A stretch of DNA of 64,000 nt, from positions 40,794,303 through 40,858,302 of the forward strand of contig NC_090177.1 of NCBI RefSeq assembly GCF_024679245.1. Reading direction: 5' to 3'. Positions 16,001 through 28,000 of this stretch are shown here, piece by piece (positions within the stretch are counted from its first letter, which is position 1; every line of letters starts with the position of its first letter). Origin of the DNA: Pseudorasbora parva. Its lineage: Eukaryota > Chordata > Actinopteri > Cypriniformes > Gobionidae. The translations under genes were made by a program, and so were the position numbers. The notes beneath the pieces were generated by a model. That model did no database searches. It was not told the origin of the DNA and saw only the letters and a list, made by a program, of their open reading frames with translations.

Positions 16001-19000
16001 AGATTGGACATGTTTAGGTAATACACTGGATAGTATACGTGTTCTTTTCACAGAAAAGCTCGGTTCGGGAGATTTAAATGACTGAAATCTGGCAACCGCA
16101 CAAACGTGAGCTCTCTCTTGTGCGCGGATGATCTGAAAACACCAATAAACAAGTAAGCTGCATTTCAGCAATCTCCATTTGAGATGTTCTGCTTAAAGTG
16201 TCATTCAGTCGGTCTGTGTTCTGTCAGGACTCACGAGCCGCTTCGCTGAACTGCTGAAATAAGCCAATCAGACCAGTGCTCAACATTAATATTCATGACT
16301 CTTCCAAATAAGGCAAAAACAGAGCTACAACTAACAAGGTCATAAGCCTGTGTGTGAATGTAGTTAATGTAGATTTACCGCTGTGTTGGCCTCAATGTTG
16401 GAAGAACTCCAAAGAAGCACGATAATTTAATAATTAAATTCCGTCTGGTGAACCTATGATAAGGAGTCAATGTTTTATGTCGGATGGGATAGCCAAAATA
16501 TCTCCAAACCACTGTCCTCTGAGCAAGTCGTGAGCGCTGAGTTTTCTTCACTATTGCTCATTTTTCTCGCTCCACTTCACTCGGATCCTCCGAGCCTGTC
16601 AGTCACTGTGACTGTAAACATTACCCAGAAGCACCCAAAAGCATATTAAAGAGACTAACTCAGAGCAGTTTTAGCGATGAAGTTCATGTAGAGCAGCATG
16701 TACTGTGAACTGAGATGCACTGATACTGAAAAAAAACTAAGAACAGATCATGAGCTGTATGTGTGTTAATGAACACGGTGGTGCGCTTCACTATGAAACA
16801 TGCAGCACATATATTTAGTTAATTCATTTGCCGCCTTTGCGACTTTACAAGCACGCTAAGCCATATCGTAATTTCGGGTTTATTTCATTTACTTTACTTG
16901 GCCCCTGTGGCAGATTGTGGAGGCCTCCTGGTTGAGAACCACAGATGTGTGAATAGAGATGTATGGTTATTTGTAGTGGTGTTTTGATATGGAGTCTAGC
17001 CTGTAAAGCGTCACATTTGTTCCCACAGCATCAGAAGAGTTCCCAGTGGTGTCAGGATCACTTCCTCAACTATAAAGGGCTCCTCCGCGCGGTGGCCGTA
17101 CGGGAACAGCTGAGGCACCTCCTCAACAAGTTTAAGGTGCCTCGGACGTCCAGTGAAGGTGAGCTGTCATTTCTTGTTTTATCCTCAGAAGCTGCCATTG
17201 GTTTGTCATACTGAGTTTAGAGATGTCTCGCTCTTCTGTCTGCTCTCAAGGTGATCCGGATGTGATCCTCAGATGTATTGTGTCTGGGTTTTTTGCTAAT
17301 GCCGCCCGTATGCATCACTCCGGCTCATACAGGTCGGTTCATTCGTCCTTGCTTGTGTTTCCTCAATAGCTCCTCTTAATCAGTGGTTGTCGCCTGACTT
17401 TTCCAGCCATATTTGCAATGCATGTCACAGTTCTTCTTTTAATGCTGTACATTGTCCAGGACTCTACGTGACGACAGAGAGCTCTACATCCATCCTGATT
17501 CAGTGCTGTATGGAGAAAAGCCCCCAAAATGGTACTCATATAAAACTAAAGGGATAGATAGCATACTTTACTGCAGTTTTTCTTTTTCACCAGATGTTAA
17601 CCGAACTGTTTGTTTTGTGACGTGTCTCAGGGTCGTCTTCAATGAGGTGGTTCAGACCAGCAAGTACTACATGCGGGACGTGACCGCGGTCGAGTCGTCC
17701 TGGCTGGTGGAGTTGGCTCCTCACTTTTACAAACAGGCCAAGGTGAGACGCACAGGATTTGTGGATGGATGTGTACATTTACATTTACATTTATGCATTT
17801 GGCAGATGCTTTTATCCAAAGCGACTTACATTGCATTCAAGGTACACATTTGACATTTTGTCAATTCTTGCTCTCCCTGGGAATTAACCCATGACCTTGG
17901 CGTTGCTACCGCCATGCTCTACTGTTTGAGCTACAGGAAAGCCTATGTGTTTAAGAAATGTTTAAATTTAAAACTGGGTCTTTTCCCACCCACATACAAT
18001 GGTTCTGACGCCCATGGATGAAGCAGAAGTGAGTGAATCATTCATTAGAAGGATTCGTAACAAAAAAAATGCAGAATTGTTCACGGAACTGAAACTGTTG
18101 CATGGTGATGTGCAGCGGCCCAACTGTTTGAAACTATTTTCTTTGGTGAAATAGATGAAAAAGACAATATTATGTCTAAAATCTAAGCGATAGCCTATTA
18201 ACTTATTGTTACTTAAATTGTTTTATAAAATCAATGTCACATTTGCAAACGTGCTGATATTTGGGAAAACAGCACTTTTGCTTGTGTGATATTACTTATA
18301 AATATTAAAGCAACAAACGTATACAGACTTGCATAACTTTTTTGCACCATTTATAGAGCTACACGATTCATCTTTAAAAGGTCACAATCTCGATTTAAAC
18401 ACCCGTGCAATCTTATTCCTAAATGACAACGATTCTGCGGTGTCTTTTATGCCCATTTCTCATTGGAAGCGTCAGCGTTTTGTCGTTGCCCACGTTAATG
18501 AATGACGGGTGTCCACTGGCACAAAGCAGGAGGAGCAGAGCGAGTGTTTTCAAGTAATTCCTATGGAAGTTCTCGCTCGCACGTGAGTGTAAAGCTCAGC
18601 TTTCTATAGGTATTTATTGAAAATGCTTGCTCTGATCCGCACCAGAGGACACGTACCGTGAGAGGGTCGGCCGCCACGCTTCCCGTGGGAACACTCTCAT
18701 TCATTGATGTGGGCAGTGACAAAACCCATGCTACTCACTCTCAACTGATGCTTGAGATGTGAAACTGTTTAAAACGAAGACTGGTTAACTTGGGAAAGTA
18801 CGATCCTCATCACACCGCAAAATTCAAATCTGCGTTCACGGTGCTGCTAATCCGGAAAGAAAGCGACACATTATCTATTTAATTATGCGTTACAAACATT
18901 TAAATAACGGGATAAAAGTTTATAGTTTGGGTATTGTTGATCTGTAATTTACAGCTTTGTCCCCGTTATGATGAAATCACAGGACCGGATACCAGTTGCC

Positions 19001-25000: not shown

Positions 25001-28000
25001 CATCCGCACTGCAACAAATTCCACCTTGTTTCACAATCCAGTGAGCTGCTAGGATTGGAAAGGCTTTAAGTTTGACAGAGTCTTTTTGGATGGTGAACCA
25101 TCTAAACTGTTCATCCAAAGAAGCATCAACATCCAGTCCTTTCTTCAAGAACTTGGCTTGTTTTTTATTTTTCTTCTCCAGGTACCAAGCAGATATTGTT
25201 CTGCTGTTAAAGCCACTCTCTGCCATCTCGCAGATGATCTGTGTCTCTGTGCTCTCAGCAGCAGGGCTATATATATATAACTATGTGTGTGTGTGTGTGT
25301 GTGTGTGCGTGACAGCTGAAGGGAAGGGTCCTGCCCTACCCTCTTTCTCTCTCTCTCACTCCCTAGATGACAACTCAGAAAACAAAGAAAGAAGAGAAAG
25401 AAAACAAAAATTAAATCCTAAATATTCTTACAAATTCCAAATTTTCTCTTTTCTTTCAGTTGAAGTCAGATCAGTCTCCTCCCCAAACATTTGAACAGCT
25501 TTAGTCAAAATCAGAAGGCCCACGATCCTAGCTACTATTAGACAGGTACCTTTTACTTTAGCGTGTTTAAATGTTCTAGGGTTCTCAAACAGTACTACTT
25601 TTAGCACAGACCCTTAACTTTAAACCGCTCTTATTTCACAGCAAGTTGCACTTTCCCCGCGCTTCTTCTAAGTGCGGCTCTGGTGTGTGGACATGTTTTA
25701 GAGTTTATTCTGCCACCTTTTACTGCAGACTCGCCACATTCCACCACCTCATAGTCACAACAAGCTAATTGCTTAACCGTTTTACGGATTATTCTCCCGA
25801 AAATTTGACAAGACAGTCTTTTGCACAAAAGATCTACTTTTACCCAGCTTCATTCAAATATTTGGAGACCCACCGATCAGAACAACTTATTAAATCACAT
25901 CAAATTAATTACTTAAAATTTGGCTATGCCTGACACACATTTATTGGCAACACAACTGGTATTTTAAAATTGCACAGTTCTTTTTAAGCAGTTTCAGTCA
26001 CTGTCTCAACACTATATATATATATCATCATCCAGGTAGACTTAGCATTTTATTTTATTTATTTTTTTAAGCAAAAGAAAATGTCTTACCTGATGAATTG
26101 ATTGAGACAAATGTCTGAAATGCAGATCCTGTTCGTGACGCCAAATGTTGATCTGTAATTTACAGCTTTGTCCCCGTTATGATGAAATCACAGGACCGGA
26201 TACCAGTTGCCATGTCAAAAAGCTCTTTTATTGTCATATGTATCAGGCATAGGAGAGAAACTTGTTTTCGTCATGCCAGCTGCATGTTTCCCTGTTTCCG
26301 TTTCTCTGTTTCTCTGGGGCAGTGCATTTACAGTGAGCATTATATACCACTGACAAAAGGATTTACAATTCCTTACAAGGTAGCAAAACTTGCATCCTAT
26401 GGTTAAAATAGAATGTATACTTCATACATACACATGTGTTCCATCAGTCAATGATACGTCACTAATGCCACGTGTTACAATGTATGCATTCCTGTATGGG
26501 CAAAATTATCTCTTCCTCCCCTGTGTCTGCCATATGATTCCAATGTATGTTCATGCAGTATATACATAACTCTCTCATGCATTTAAACTTCACAAACACA
26601 TTATACATCCATTTATGAATAAAATAATATTAAAATAATAAAATATCCATTTATGAATGAAATAATATTAAAATAATAAAATAATATTAAAATAATAAAT
26701 TTCCAGTCTACAGGTATAGACAAGTGAGAAAGTGTCTTTCATGCTAAGATCAACAACACAACAAATCTGAAGCACGTGACAGTGCGCGGAATAAACTAAA
26801 GAGCAGTTTCTCCGTATTCGACGGCAAGAAGAACTGCAGTCACACAAAAGTACTGAAACTCAACATATACTTTCCTCTCAGACTTGAGAAATTGGCTCAT
26901 AGAAAGCTTGACAAATCAAATCGAAACAAATACTTGATGTAATCCAAATGAAAGCTCCAGTTCCCTCTTATAGACGGTTTCAACGGCAACAACATAAACA
27001 CACCTGACTGCGCATGCTTTACGTTTGTAAGTTTGTGTGGCTCAAACTTAACTTCCGTTAGACGTCTGCAAAGAAACAGACGCTGCATTATCTTTATGCG
27101 TGATCATATTTTGTTTTAATTGTGCAACATTATCTTAATTTATATGTTTTTATTATTTCATCATGTTTATTATAAATAATCTCCCATTTCTGTCCTCAAT
27201 ATAGAGTGTGGGAAACGCTCCCCTTAAAGCAGGGGTCTCAAACTCAAATTACCTGGAGGTAGACTCTGGGTCAGGCTGGGCCGCATCAAATTTTCCACAA
27301 AAAAAAAAAAAAAGTACAACTGATCAAATATTCTCAATCTTTATTATTAACAGTTCTTCAACATTAATGTTTCTTCTGAACATGAACATGGCTTCTCTTG
27401 CTTACTCGTGTTTTTTTTTTTTATTGCCAATATTTTTGAGATTTTTGGATCTGGTTATCCTTCGTCCTTCGCACCTATCTATTACCAACAGGTGTGTGAT
27501 GGTAATTGTGTACTAATAAATATGGCCAATAGAAATTAAATCATTATGTAATACTGAAATAATAACTGTTTTTATTTTTATTTAAAATAATAGACTATTT
27601 CAAAGCAAGGCCATAACCAGGTCAAACAGATCAGTGAACGAAATTCTGAACGATATTTGCATTAATTGTTGTCAAATATTATTAGTCCCGAGATTATTCC
27701 CATAAGTGAATAAATACGTACATCTGCTGCTTATATTTGAGTTCCTCAGTGGTCTTATAGTAGATTTTTAGTAAATCGTCTCAAATGTTCAGAGTTTTAA
27801 TCCGCTCATATAGTTTTCTTCATTATAATGTTCATCAATGATTGTATATTAAGGGCATGGAAACGTTGCATTTTGTGTGCTTTTGTGTGTGTGCAATTTA
27901 GTTTTGTGATTTTACCGGAAAGAATAGCCTCTCTTCGCAACAGCATTACGCGATAGATTGACACACTCTCGTCTGTGTGTGTGTGTGTGTGTGTGTGTGT

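What the first reader, a model, noticed from the sequence alone, without database searches (positions are those of the whole stretch)
18935..26712. Very young, apparently intact env-less retrovirus in the last dhx35 intron
Seen: equal 567-bp LTRs with no difference I could find by eye, a perfect 5-bp target duplication (GGTAT), primer site, polypurine tract, and uninterrupted gag and pro-pol frames with all catalytic residues. LTRs are identical at insertion and diverge with time, so this copy should be recent, possibly polymorphic in the population and possibly mobile. It lacks env, so it would behave as an intracellular element.
Basis: partly seen in the sequence, partly recalled or inferred. 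Interest (0 to 1): 0.75.

Follow-up and report, generated by a model that had tools for sequence, protein, structure and literature searches.

The report
Young env-deleted fish endogenous retrovirus
A retrovirus that recently copied itself into the last intron of a fish gene lacks its envelope gene through a deletion shared with sister copies, while envelope-bearing relatives of similar youth sit in the same genome.

Summary
At 18935-26712 (minus strand, antisense to dhx35, last intron) lies a 7,778-bp provirus: identical LTRs (567/567), GGTAT duplication, primer-site candidate, polypurine tract, and gag and pro-pol frames without internal stops. gag and pol share one frame across a UAG, followed 8 nt later by a stable stem, as in murine leukemia virus readthrough.

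The reading needs correcting on env. The genome, Pseudorasbora parva by an exact contig-length match, holds at least 10 proviruses of this family with 99-100% gag identity over 1 kb. Seven lack env with one identical junction; three carry a 2.1-kb env-position segment there, each broken by a different frame change. A sister family, 85-87% alike in gag, has an open 706-aa env-like frame in 3 of 3 copies read. So env was most likely deleted once, and the deleted form then spread.

This copy is one of a young group: LTR pairs differ at 0-2 sites in 7 of 7 measurable proviruses. Polymorphism, transcription and present mobility were not testable. It is a new member of a known kind.

The parts
26146..26712 (-). 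5' LTR of the element (567 bp; TATATAA at LTR position 367, AATAAA at 481)
   Evidence: identical to the other LTR; signals
18935..19501 (-). 3' LTR of the element
18930..18934 (.). target duplication GGTAT, left copy
26713..26717 (.). target duplication GGTAT, right copy
26126..26143 (-). primer-binding-site candidate, 2 nt after the LTR; primer tRNA not identified
   Evidence: searches found no matching tRNA gene
25227..26145 (-). leader between 5' LTR and gag ATG, including the primer site
23658..25226 (-). gag, 522 aa from the first ATG, PPPY motif, one CCHC knuckle, ends in UAG
23588..23649 (-). stem-loop (10-bp outer stem) 8 nt after the gag UAG, putative readthrough signal
   Evidence: z -4.43, 0 of 200 shuffles as stable; coordinates; other copies
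19965..23657 (-). pro-pol: protease, reverse transcriptase, RNase H, integrase with MLV-type C-terminus
19946..19947 (-). env-deletion junction: three family members carry 2,095-2,102 extra bp exactly here
19503..19512 (-). polypurine tract
17743..32366 (+). last intron of dhx35, which holds the provirus in antisense

Best explanation
This is a recently integrated provirus of a multi-copy, class I-like (gamma/epsilon-type pol) endogenous retrovirus of Pseudorasbora parva. Its ancestor carried an env-position gene, which one 2.1-kb deletion just after pol removed. The deleted form is now found at seven places, presumably made by reverse transcription and integrase-mediated insertion with its own kind of gag-pol, pol being made by readthrough of the gag UAG. 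Shown: the anatomy, the shared junction, target duplications that differ from site to site, and near-zero LTR divergence. Inferred: that the deletion happened once, that spread was mainly inside germ cells, and that readthrough works. Not shown: whether any copy moves today.
For: Identical LTRs and target duplication. Domain set. Connection/RNase H piece: 230 bits to MLV RT against 54 to foamy. UAG plus a stem after an 8-nt spacer; UAG and the outer stem kept in 21 of 21 copies compared, with a C-to-U that leaves a G-U pair in 8. Ten family proviruses with 99-100% gag identity over 1 kb. The 766 bp across the deletion point are contiguous in 7 of 10 and interrupted at the same point in 3 of 10. 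Sister family with an open env-like frame in 3 of 3 copies read. LTR pairs 0/567, 0/567, 2/567, 0/545, 0/530, 1/528 and 2/528. Families A and B differ under purifying selection: dN/dS 0.18 gag piece, 0.09 pro-RT, 0.10 env segment.
Against: LTR identity can also come from conversion between the LTRs. No other individual was examined. Primer tRNA not identified. RT alone and integrase score best to foamy proteins, and the RT tree puts the family beside, not inside, the clade that holds gamma-type gag or env markers. 219 of 465 pairs of informative sites fail the four-gamete test, so the copies do not follow one tree, and a single deletion spread by recombination or conversion cannot be told from a single deletion spread by copying alone; a local-order test for recombination in gag was not significant (3487 of 5000 permutations at or below the observed value).
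Confidence: 0.85

Rival explanations
1. The env-less copies do not spread on their own: env-bearing relatives in the same germ line package them or carry them to new cells, and recombination during co-packaging spreads the deletion.
For: Env-bearing copies of family A and sister family B coexist in this genome, and two of three B LTR pairs read are identical. Presence of env conflicts with 15 of 31 informative sites and 219 of 465 site pairs fail the four-gamete test, as expected if env-plus and env-minus genomes mix.
Against: The window copy has open gag and pol frames, so it need not depend on help for intracellular copying. All three A copies that carry the env segment have a frame change in it, so any helper would have to be family B or an unsampled copy. 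Gene conversion among copies could also cause the reticulation, and the local-order test was not significant.
Confidence: 0.25
2. It is a class III (ERV-L or foamy-like) element, which would be env-less by nature.
For: 5-bp target duplication; RT piece 119.7 bits to the best foamy-type chain against 106.7 to the best MLV-type chain; integrase best hit is PFV (which chains are foamy or MLV is partly recalled).
Against: Connection/RNase H piece 230 bits to MLV against 54 to foamy; MLVIN_C and CCHC present and no dUTPase found by Pfam; env-bearing relatives exist.
Confidence: 0.1
3. The LTR identity is an assembly artefact or LTR-LTR conversion, and the insertion is old.
For: Either would give identical LTRs.
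Against: gag and pol frames are open and the target duplication is perfect; LTR lengths differ between copies (567, 545, 530, 528) and each matches its own partner, as integration predicts, though conversion would predict that too.
Confidence: 0.05

Closest known systems
Class I endogenous retroviruses (gamma/epsilon-like), including elements of Pimephales promelas (P0012, P0013)
   Same: pro-RT-RNase H-integrase order with MLV-type integrase C-terminus, one CCHC in gag, gag and pol in one frame around UAG; about 90% aa identity over 351 residues of pro-RT to the two P. promelas proteins
   Different: no env in this copy; mostly 5-bp target duplications; RT lies beside rather than inside the clade with Gag_p30/TLV_coat markers
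Murine leukemia virus gag-pol readthrough signal (PMC4178896, passages seen)
   Same: UAG, 8-nt spacer, stable structure downstream
   Different: a plain long stem is predicted here; a pseudoknot was not tested; no readthrough measurement
Env-less 'superspreader' endogenous retroviruses (model as cited in PMC10536682 and PMC4643047, passages seen; the original 2012 paper was not seen)
   Same: env lost, and the env-less form multiplied
   Different: only 7 env-less copies found so far; env-bearing relatives are at least as numerous and, in those dated, as young
XtERV-S of Xenopus (PMC8278194, abstract and passages seen)
   Same: identical LTRs, open frames, in-frame stop between gag and pol, young insertion in a lower vertebrate
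   Different: class III gag-pol, has env, UGA stop, lacks the CCHC knuckle

Membership tests
Endogenous retrovirus (LTR retroelement) | two LTRs, target duplication, primer site, polypurine tract, gag and pol with RT, RNase H, integrase | tested here: met
   the primer tRNA itself not identified
Class I (gamma/epsilon-like) ERV | pol closest to gammaretroviral pol | tested here: inconclusive
   for: connection/RNase H 230 bits MLV against 54 foamy, MLVIN_C 35.7 bits over a 29.2 cut-off; against: RT and integrase pieces score best to foamy chains
Class I (gamma/epsilon-like) ERV | gag and pol in one frame separated by a stop | tested here: met
   frame and UAG; readthrough itself not testable here
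Class I (gamma/epsilon-like) ERV | phylogenetic place with named gamma- or epsilonretroviruses | tested here: inconclusive
   RT tree of 57 rows (56 of 60 fetched proteins plus the window) had no named exogenous retrovirus
Class I (gamma/epsilon-like) ERV | 4-bp target duplication (recalled as typical, not defining) | tested here: not met
   5 bp in 6 of 10 family sites read, 4 bp in 3, one ambiguous within a TG repeat
Class III ERV-L/foamy-like | pol closest to foamy virus throughout; no CCHC (foamy) or a dUTPase (some ERV-L; recalled) | tested here: not met
   RT and integrase alone would fit
Env-less intracellular element | env absent from the copy | tested here: met
Env-less intracellular element | spread without an extracellular phase | not testable with these tools
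   inferred only; co-packaging with env-bearing copies not excluded

The most novel reading that the evidence does not exclude
Env loss caught in the act: within one genome, env-plus and env-minus forms of one retrovirus are similarly young and share mosaic sequence. The env-minus form would then be a very recent lineage carried partly by env-bearing helpers, whose env-like protein (706 aa, no Pfam envelope match at threshold, no CX6CC motif) may be of an undescribed type.
Probability: 0.3. Interest if true: 0.62.

Novelty: new member of a known kind. Interest (0 to 1): 0.42.

Why it matters
How retroviruses turn into genome-bound elements after losing env is hard to study in old remnants. Here env-plus and env-minus forms of the same family, with LTR pairs differing at 0-2 sites where measurable, sit in one fish genome and differ at one clean deletion point. 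That allows a direct population test of whether losing env raises the rate of new insertions.

Tried and rejected
Class III assignment: considered because the RT and integrase pieces score best to foamy proteins; disfavoured on the connection/RNase H piece. Splicing as the cause of the env gap: disfavoured, because the missing segment does not begin with GT. A named primer tRNA: a serine tRNA was guessed from recall; two pattern searches found no tRNA gene with that 3' end (0 matches; 3 places, none a tRNA by ARAGORN), so it is left open. Relatives in viral contigs: none for RT or for the 706-aa env-position frame. The 679-aa C24 frame, whose end is out of frame, found nothing in the PDB at E 0.01 or in NCBIfam; the 706-aa frame was run against Pfam only. 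Papers holding both Pseudorasbora parva and retrovirus: 0 in the library searched. Local-order recombination test in gag: not significant. A first LTR-pair comparison misplaced LTR ends in shorter LTRs and was replaced; a first site count (30 sites, 210 of 435 pairs) cut one region wrongly for some copies and was replaced (31 sites). An earlier count said that the three A env copies share one frame change; one search shows this to be wrong: each has its own.

Full report
What was checked. The reported element is real and lies exactly where stated. The LTRs at 18935-19501 and 26146-26712 are identical over 567 bp, flanked by GGTAT on both sides. It runs on the minus strand. Two bases after the 5' LTR is a primer-site candidate, and one base before the 3' LTR ends a polypurine tract. 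The stop-to-stop frames are 540 aa (gag, first ATG at 25226) and 1,230 aa (pol), in one frame and separated by a single UAG. Pfam finds the expected domains, and DTGA and YVDD are present. On the element's strand the only frame of 80 aa or more downstream of pol is one of 80 aa running into the LTR. The host intron is the last one of dhx35: splice donor after 17742, and a last exon from 32367 that encodes a short C-terminus. A helicase exon fits DHX35 best in the PDB (96.1 bits). That the last exon is recognised rests on its likeness to the end of human DHX35, which I recalled.

Host and kin. The window lies in G000, 1.23 Gb in 79 contigs. Contig C1 is 70,945,429 bp, the same length as the longest contig given for protein P0020 of Pseudorasbora parva, so I take the host to be that fish. 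Among 53 proteins found with a 710-aa pol piece (E up to 1e-40), the closest are three from the fathead minnow Pimephales promelas (87-93% identity over the covered part). Two gag relatives without a named organism (sources jgi and lgn) are 77% identical and end at the same place. In an RT tree of 57 rows the window groups with two P. promelas proteins (100/100) inside a clade of 19 rows (95/94), beside a clade of 35 rows that holds the proteins with Gag_p30 or TLV_coat domains. The connection/RNase H piece fits MLV RT far better than foamy RT (230 against 54 bits), while the RT and integrase pieces score best to foamy proteins. I therefore call it class I-like without naming a genus.

Copies in the genome. 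Counts here are lower bounds, because the tool scores only its best candidates. A 1-kb gag piece finds 10 copies at 99-100% (the window included) and a second set, which I call family B: 16 copies at 85-87% over nearly the whole piece, plus shorter fragments. The ten A copies lie on C1, C6 (window), C8, C11, C15, C17, C18, C20, C22 and C24. The 766-bp stretch from the end of pol to the 3' LTR is contiguous in 7 of 10 (C1, C6, C8, C11, C18, C20, C22). In the other 3 (C15, C17, C24) it is interrupted at one identical point, 18 nt past the pol stop, by 2,095-2,102 bp. That segment holds a frame that starts at the end of pol, the usual place of env. Held against family B, each of the three has one frame change and each at a different place: C15 and C17 in the first half, C24 near the C-terminal end. 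So these breaks are not shared.

The env-position gene in family B. In the three B copies read, the frame is 706 aa without stops, 92% identical to the C24 frame over 645 residues. It has a hydrophobic N-terminus, six glycosylation sites and a strong membrane segment near residue 657. It has an RKPR site followed by a glycine-rich stretch, but no R-X-K/R-R site and no CX6CC motif. Pfam gives only sub-threshold GP41 (likewise the C15 and C17 frames). Position, hydrophobic start and membrane segment make it an envelope gene by anatomy; its type is open. A 1.1-kb piece of the segment matches full length in 16 places, 3 in family A and 13 at 89-90%. Because B has it, presence is most likely ancestral and absence derived.

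Age. LTR pairs could be compared in 7 of 10 A copies: 0/567 (window), 0/567, 2/567, 0/545, 0/530, 2/528, 1/528. C24's 5' LTR is partly replaced, C15's 3' LTR is split by an insertion, and C18's 3' LTR stops matching after 85 bp. Of three B pairs read, two are identical over 634-636 bp and one shows a single gap in 640. With the fish rate of 1.46e-8 per site per year used in PMC8672886 (passages seen), zero differences in 567 bp gives a 95% upper bound of about 181,000 years; at 5e-9, a rate I chose as a slower alternative, about 528,000 years. Identical LTRs are not rare in fish: that paper reports them in 248 of 890 zebrafish elements. Target duplications in family A are 5 bp in 6 of 10 sites read (two of the ten are solo LTRs), 4 bp in 3, and ambiguous in a TG repeat in 1; C18 and C24 could not be read. 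In family B, two of three sites show 5 bp and in the third I found none.

How it works. Shown by sequence: open gag and pol frames, and a UAG between them with a 10-bp stem after an 8-nt spacer (z -4.43, 0 of 200 shuffles as stable), the layout described for MLV in PMC4178896 (passages seen). The UAG and stem are kept in all 21 copies compared (10 A, 11 B); 8 carry a C-to-U that still pairs with G. Because the region is coding and the copies are close kin, this conservation is weak support. Folds of three other copies gave z -2.5 to -3.1, with 1 to 5 of 200 shuffles as stable. The A-B comparison gives dN/dS of 0.18 (gag piece), 0.09 (pro-RT) and 0.10 (env segment), so all three genes were under purifying selection while A and B diverged. 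Inferred: the env-less form spreads inside germ cells by reverse transcription and integration. Against a simple picture, 219 of 465 pairs of informative sites fail the four-gamete test and env presence conflicts with 15 of 31 sites, so env-plus and env-minus copies share mosaic sequence; a test for local clustering in gag was not significant. Co-packaging with env-bearing copies, or conversion among copies, is therefore possible.

Verdict. The corrections are that the absence of env is a shared deletion in a family that also has env-bearing members, that pol lies behind an in-frame stop, and that this copy is one of a young group. Population polymorphism, transcription and mobility remain untested. 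The odds are as I first set them; the corrected frame-change count changes a detail of the env history, not the main claim.

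Noticed in passing
window 46115-56177: A 10-kb tandem array of a 42-bp unit (239 copies, 93% matches), open in several frames; the unit length is a multiple of three.
   Followed up: partly
window 59515-60522: A 335-aa frame without stops that matches Tc1/mariner-type transposase domains.
   Followed up: partly
window 38461-39565: Long CA/TG-rich simple repeat giving large spurious frames.
   Followed up: no
G000:C15 32904551-32914330: The 3' LTR of a family copy is split by about 9.2 kb of other DNA with a 4-bp overlap at the break, apparently a later insertion.
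   Followed up: partly
G000:C22, family copy between 12099312 and 12104519: By distance, about 1.5 kb of extra DNA lies inside pol of this env-less copy, whose LTRs are identical.
   Followed up: partly
L062-L064 against P0012/P0013: Families A and B of P. parva and the P. promelas proteins are about equally distant from each other in pro-RT (90-92% aa), which may hint at transfer between fish lineages or slow pol evolution.
   Followed up: partly
G000:C9 414135-414663 and C16 30784146-30784712: Solo LTRs of the family with 5-bp (CCTTC) and 4-bp (CTAG) duplications.
   Followed up: partly
L039 453-2570: Env-position frame of 706 aa with no Pfam envelope match at threshold and no CX6CC motif; its fusion-protein type is unknown.
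   Followed up: partly
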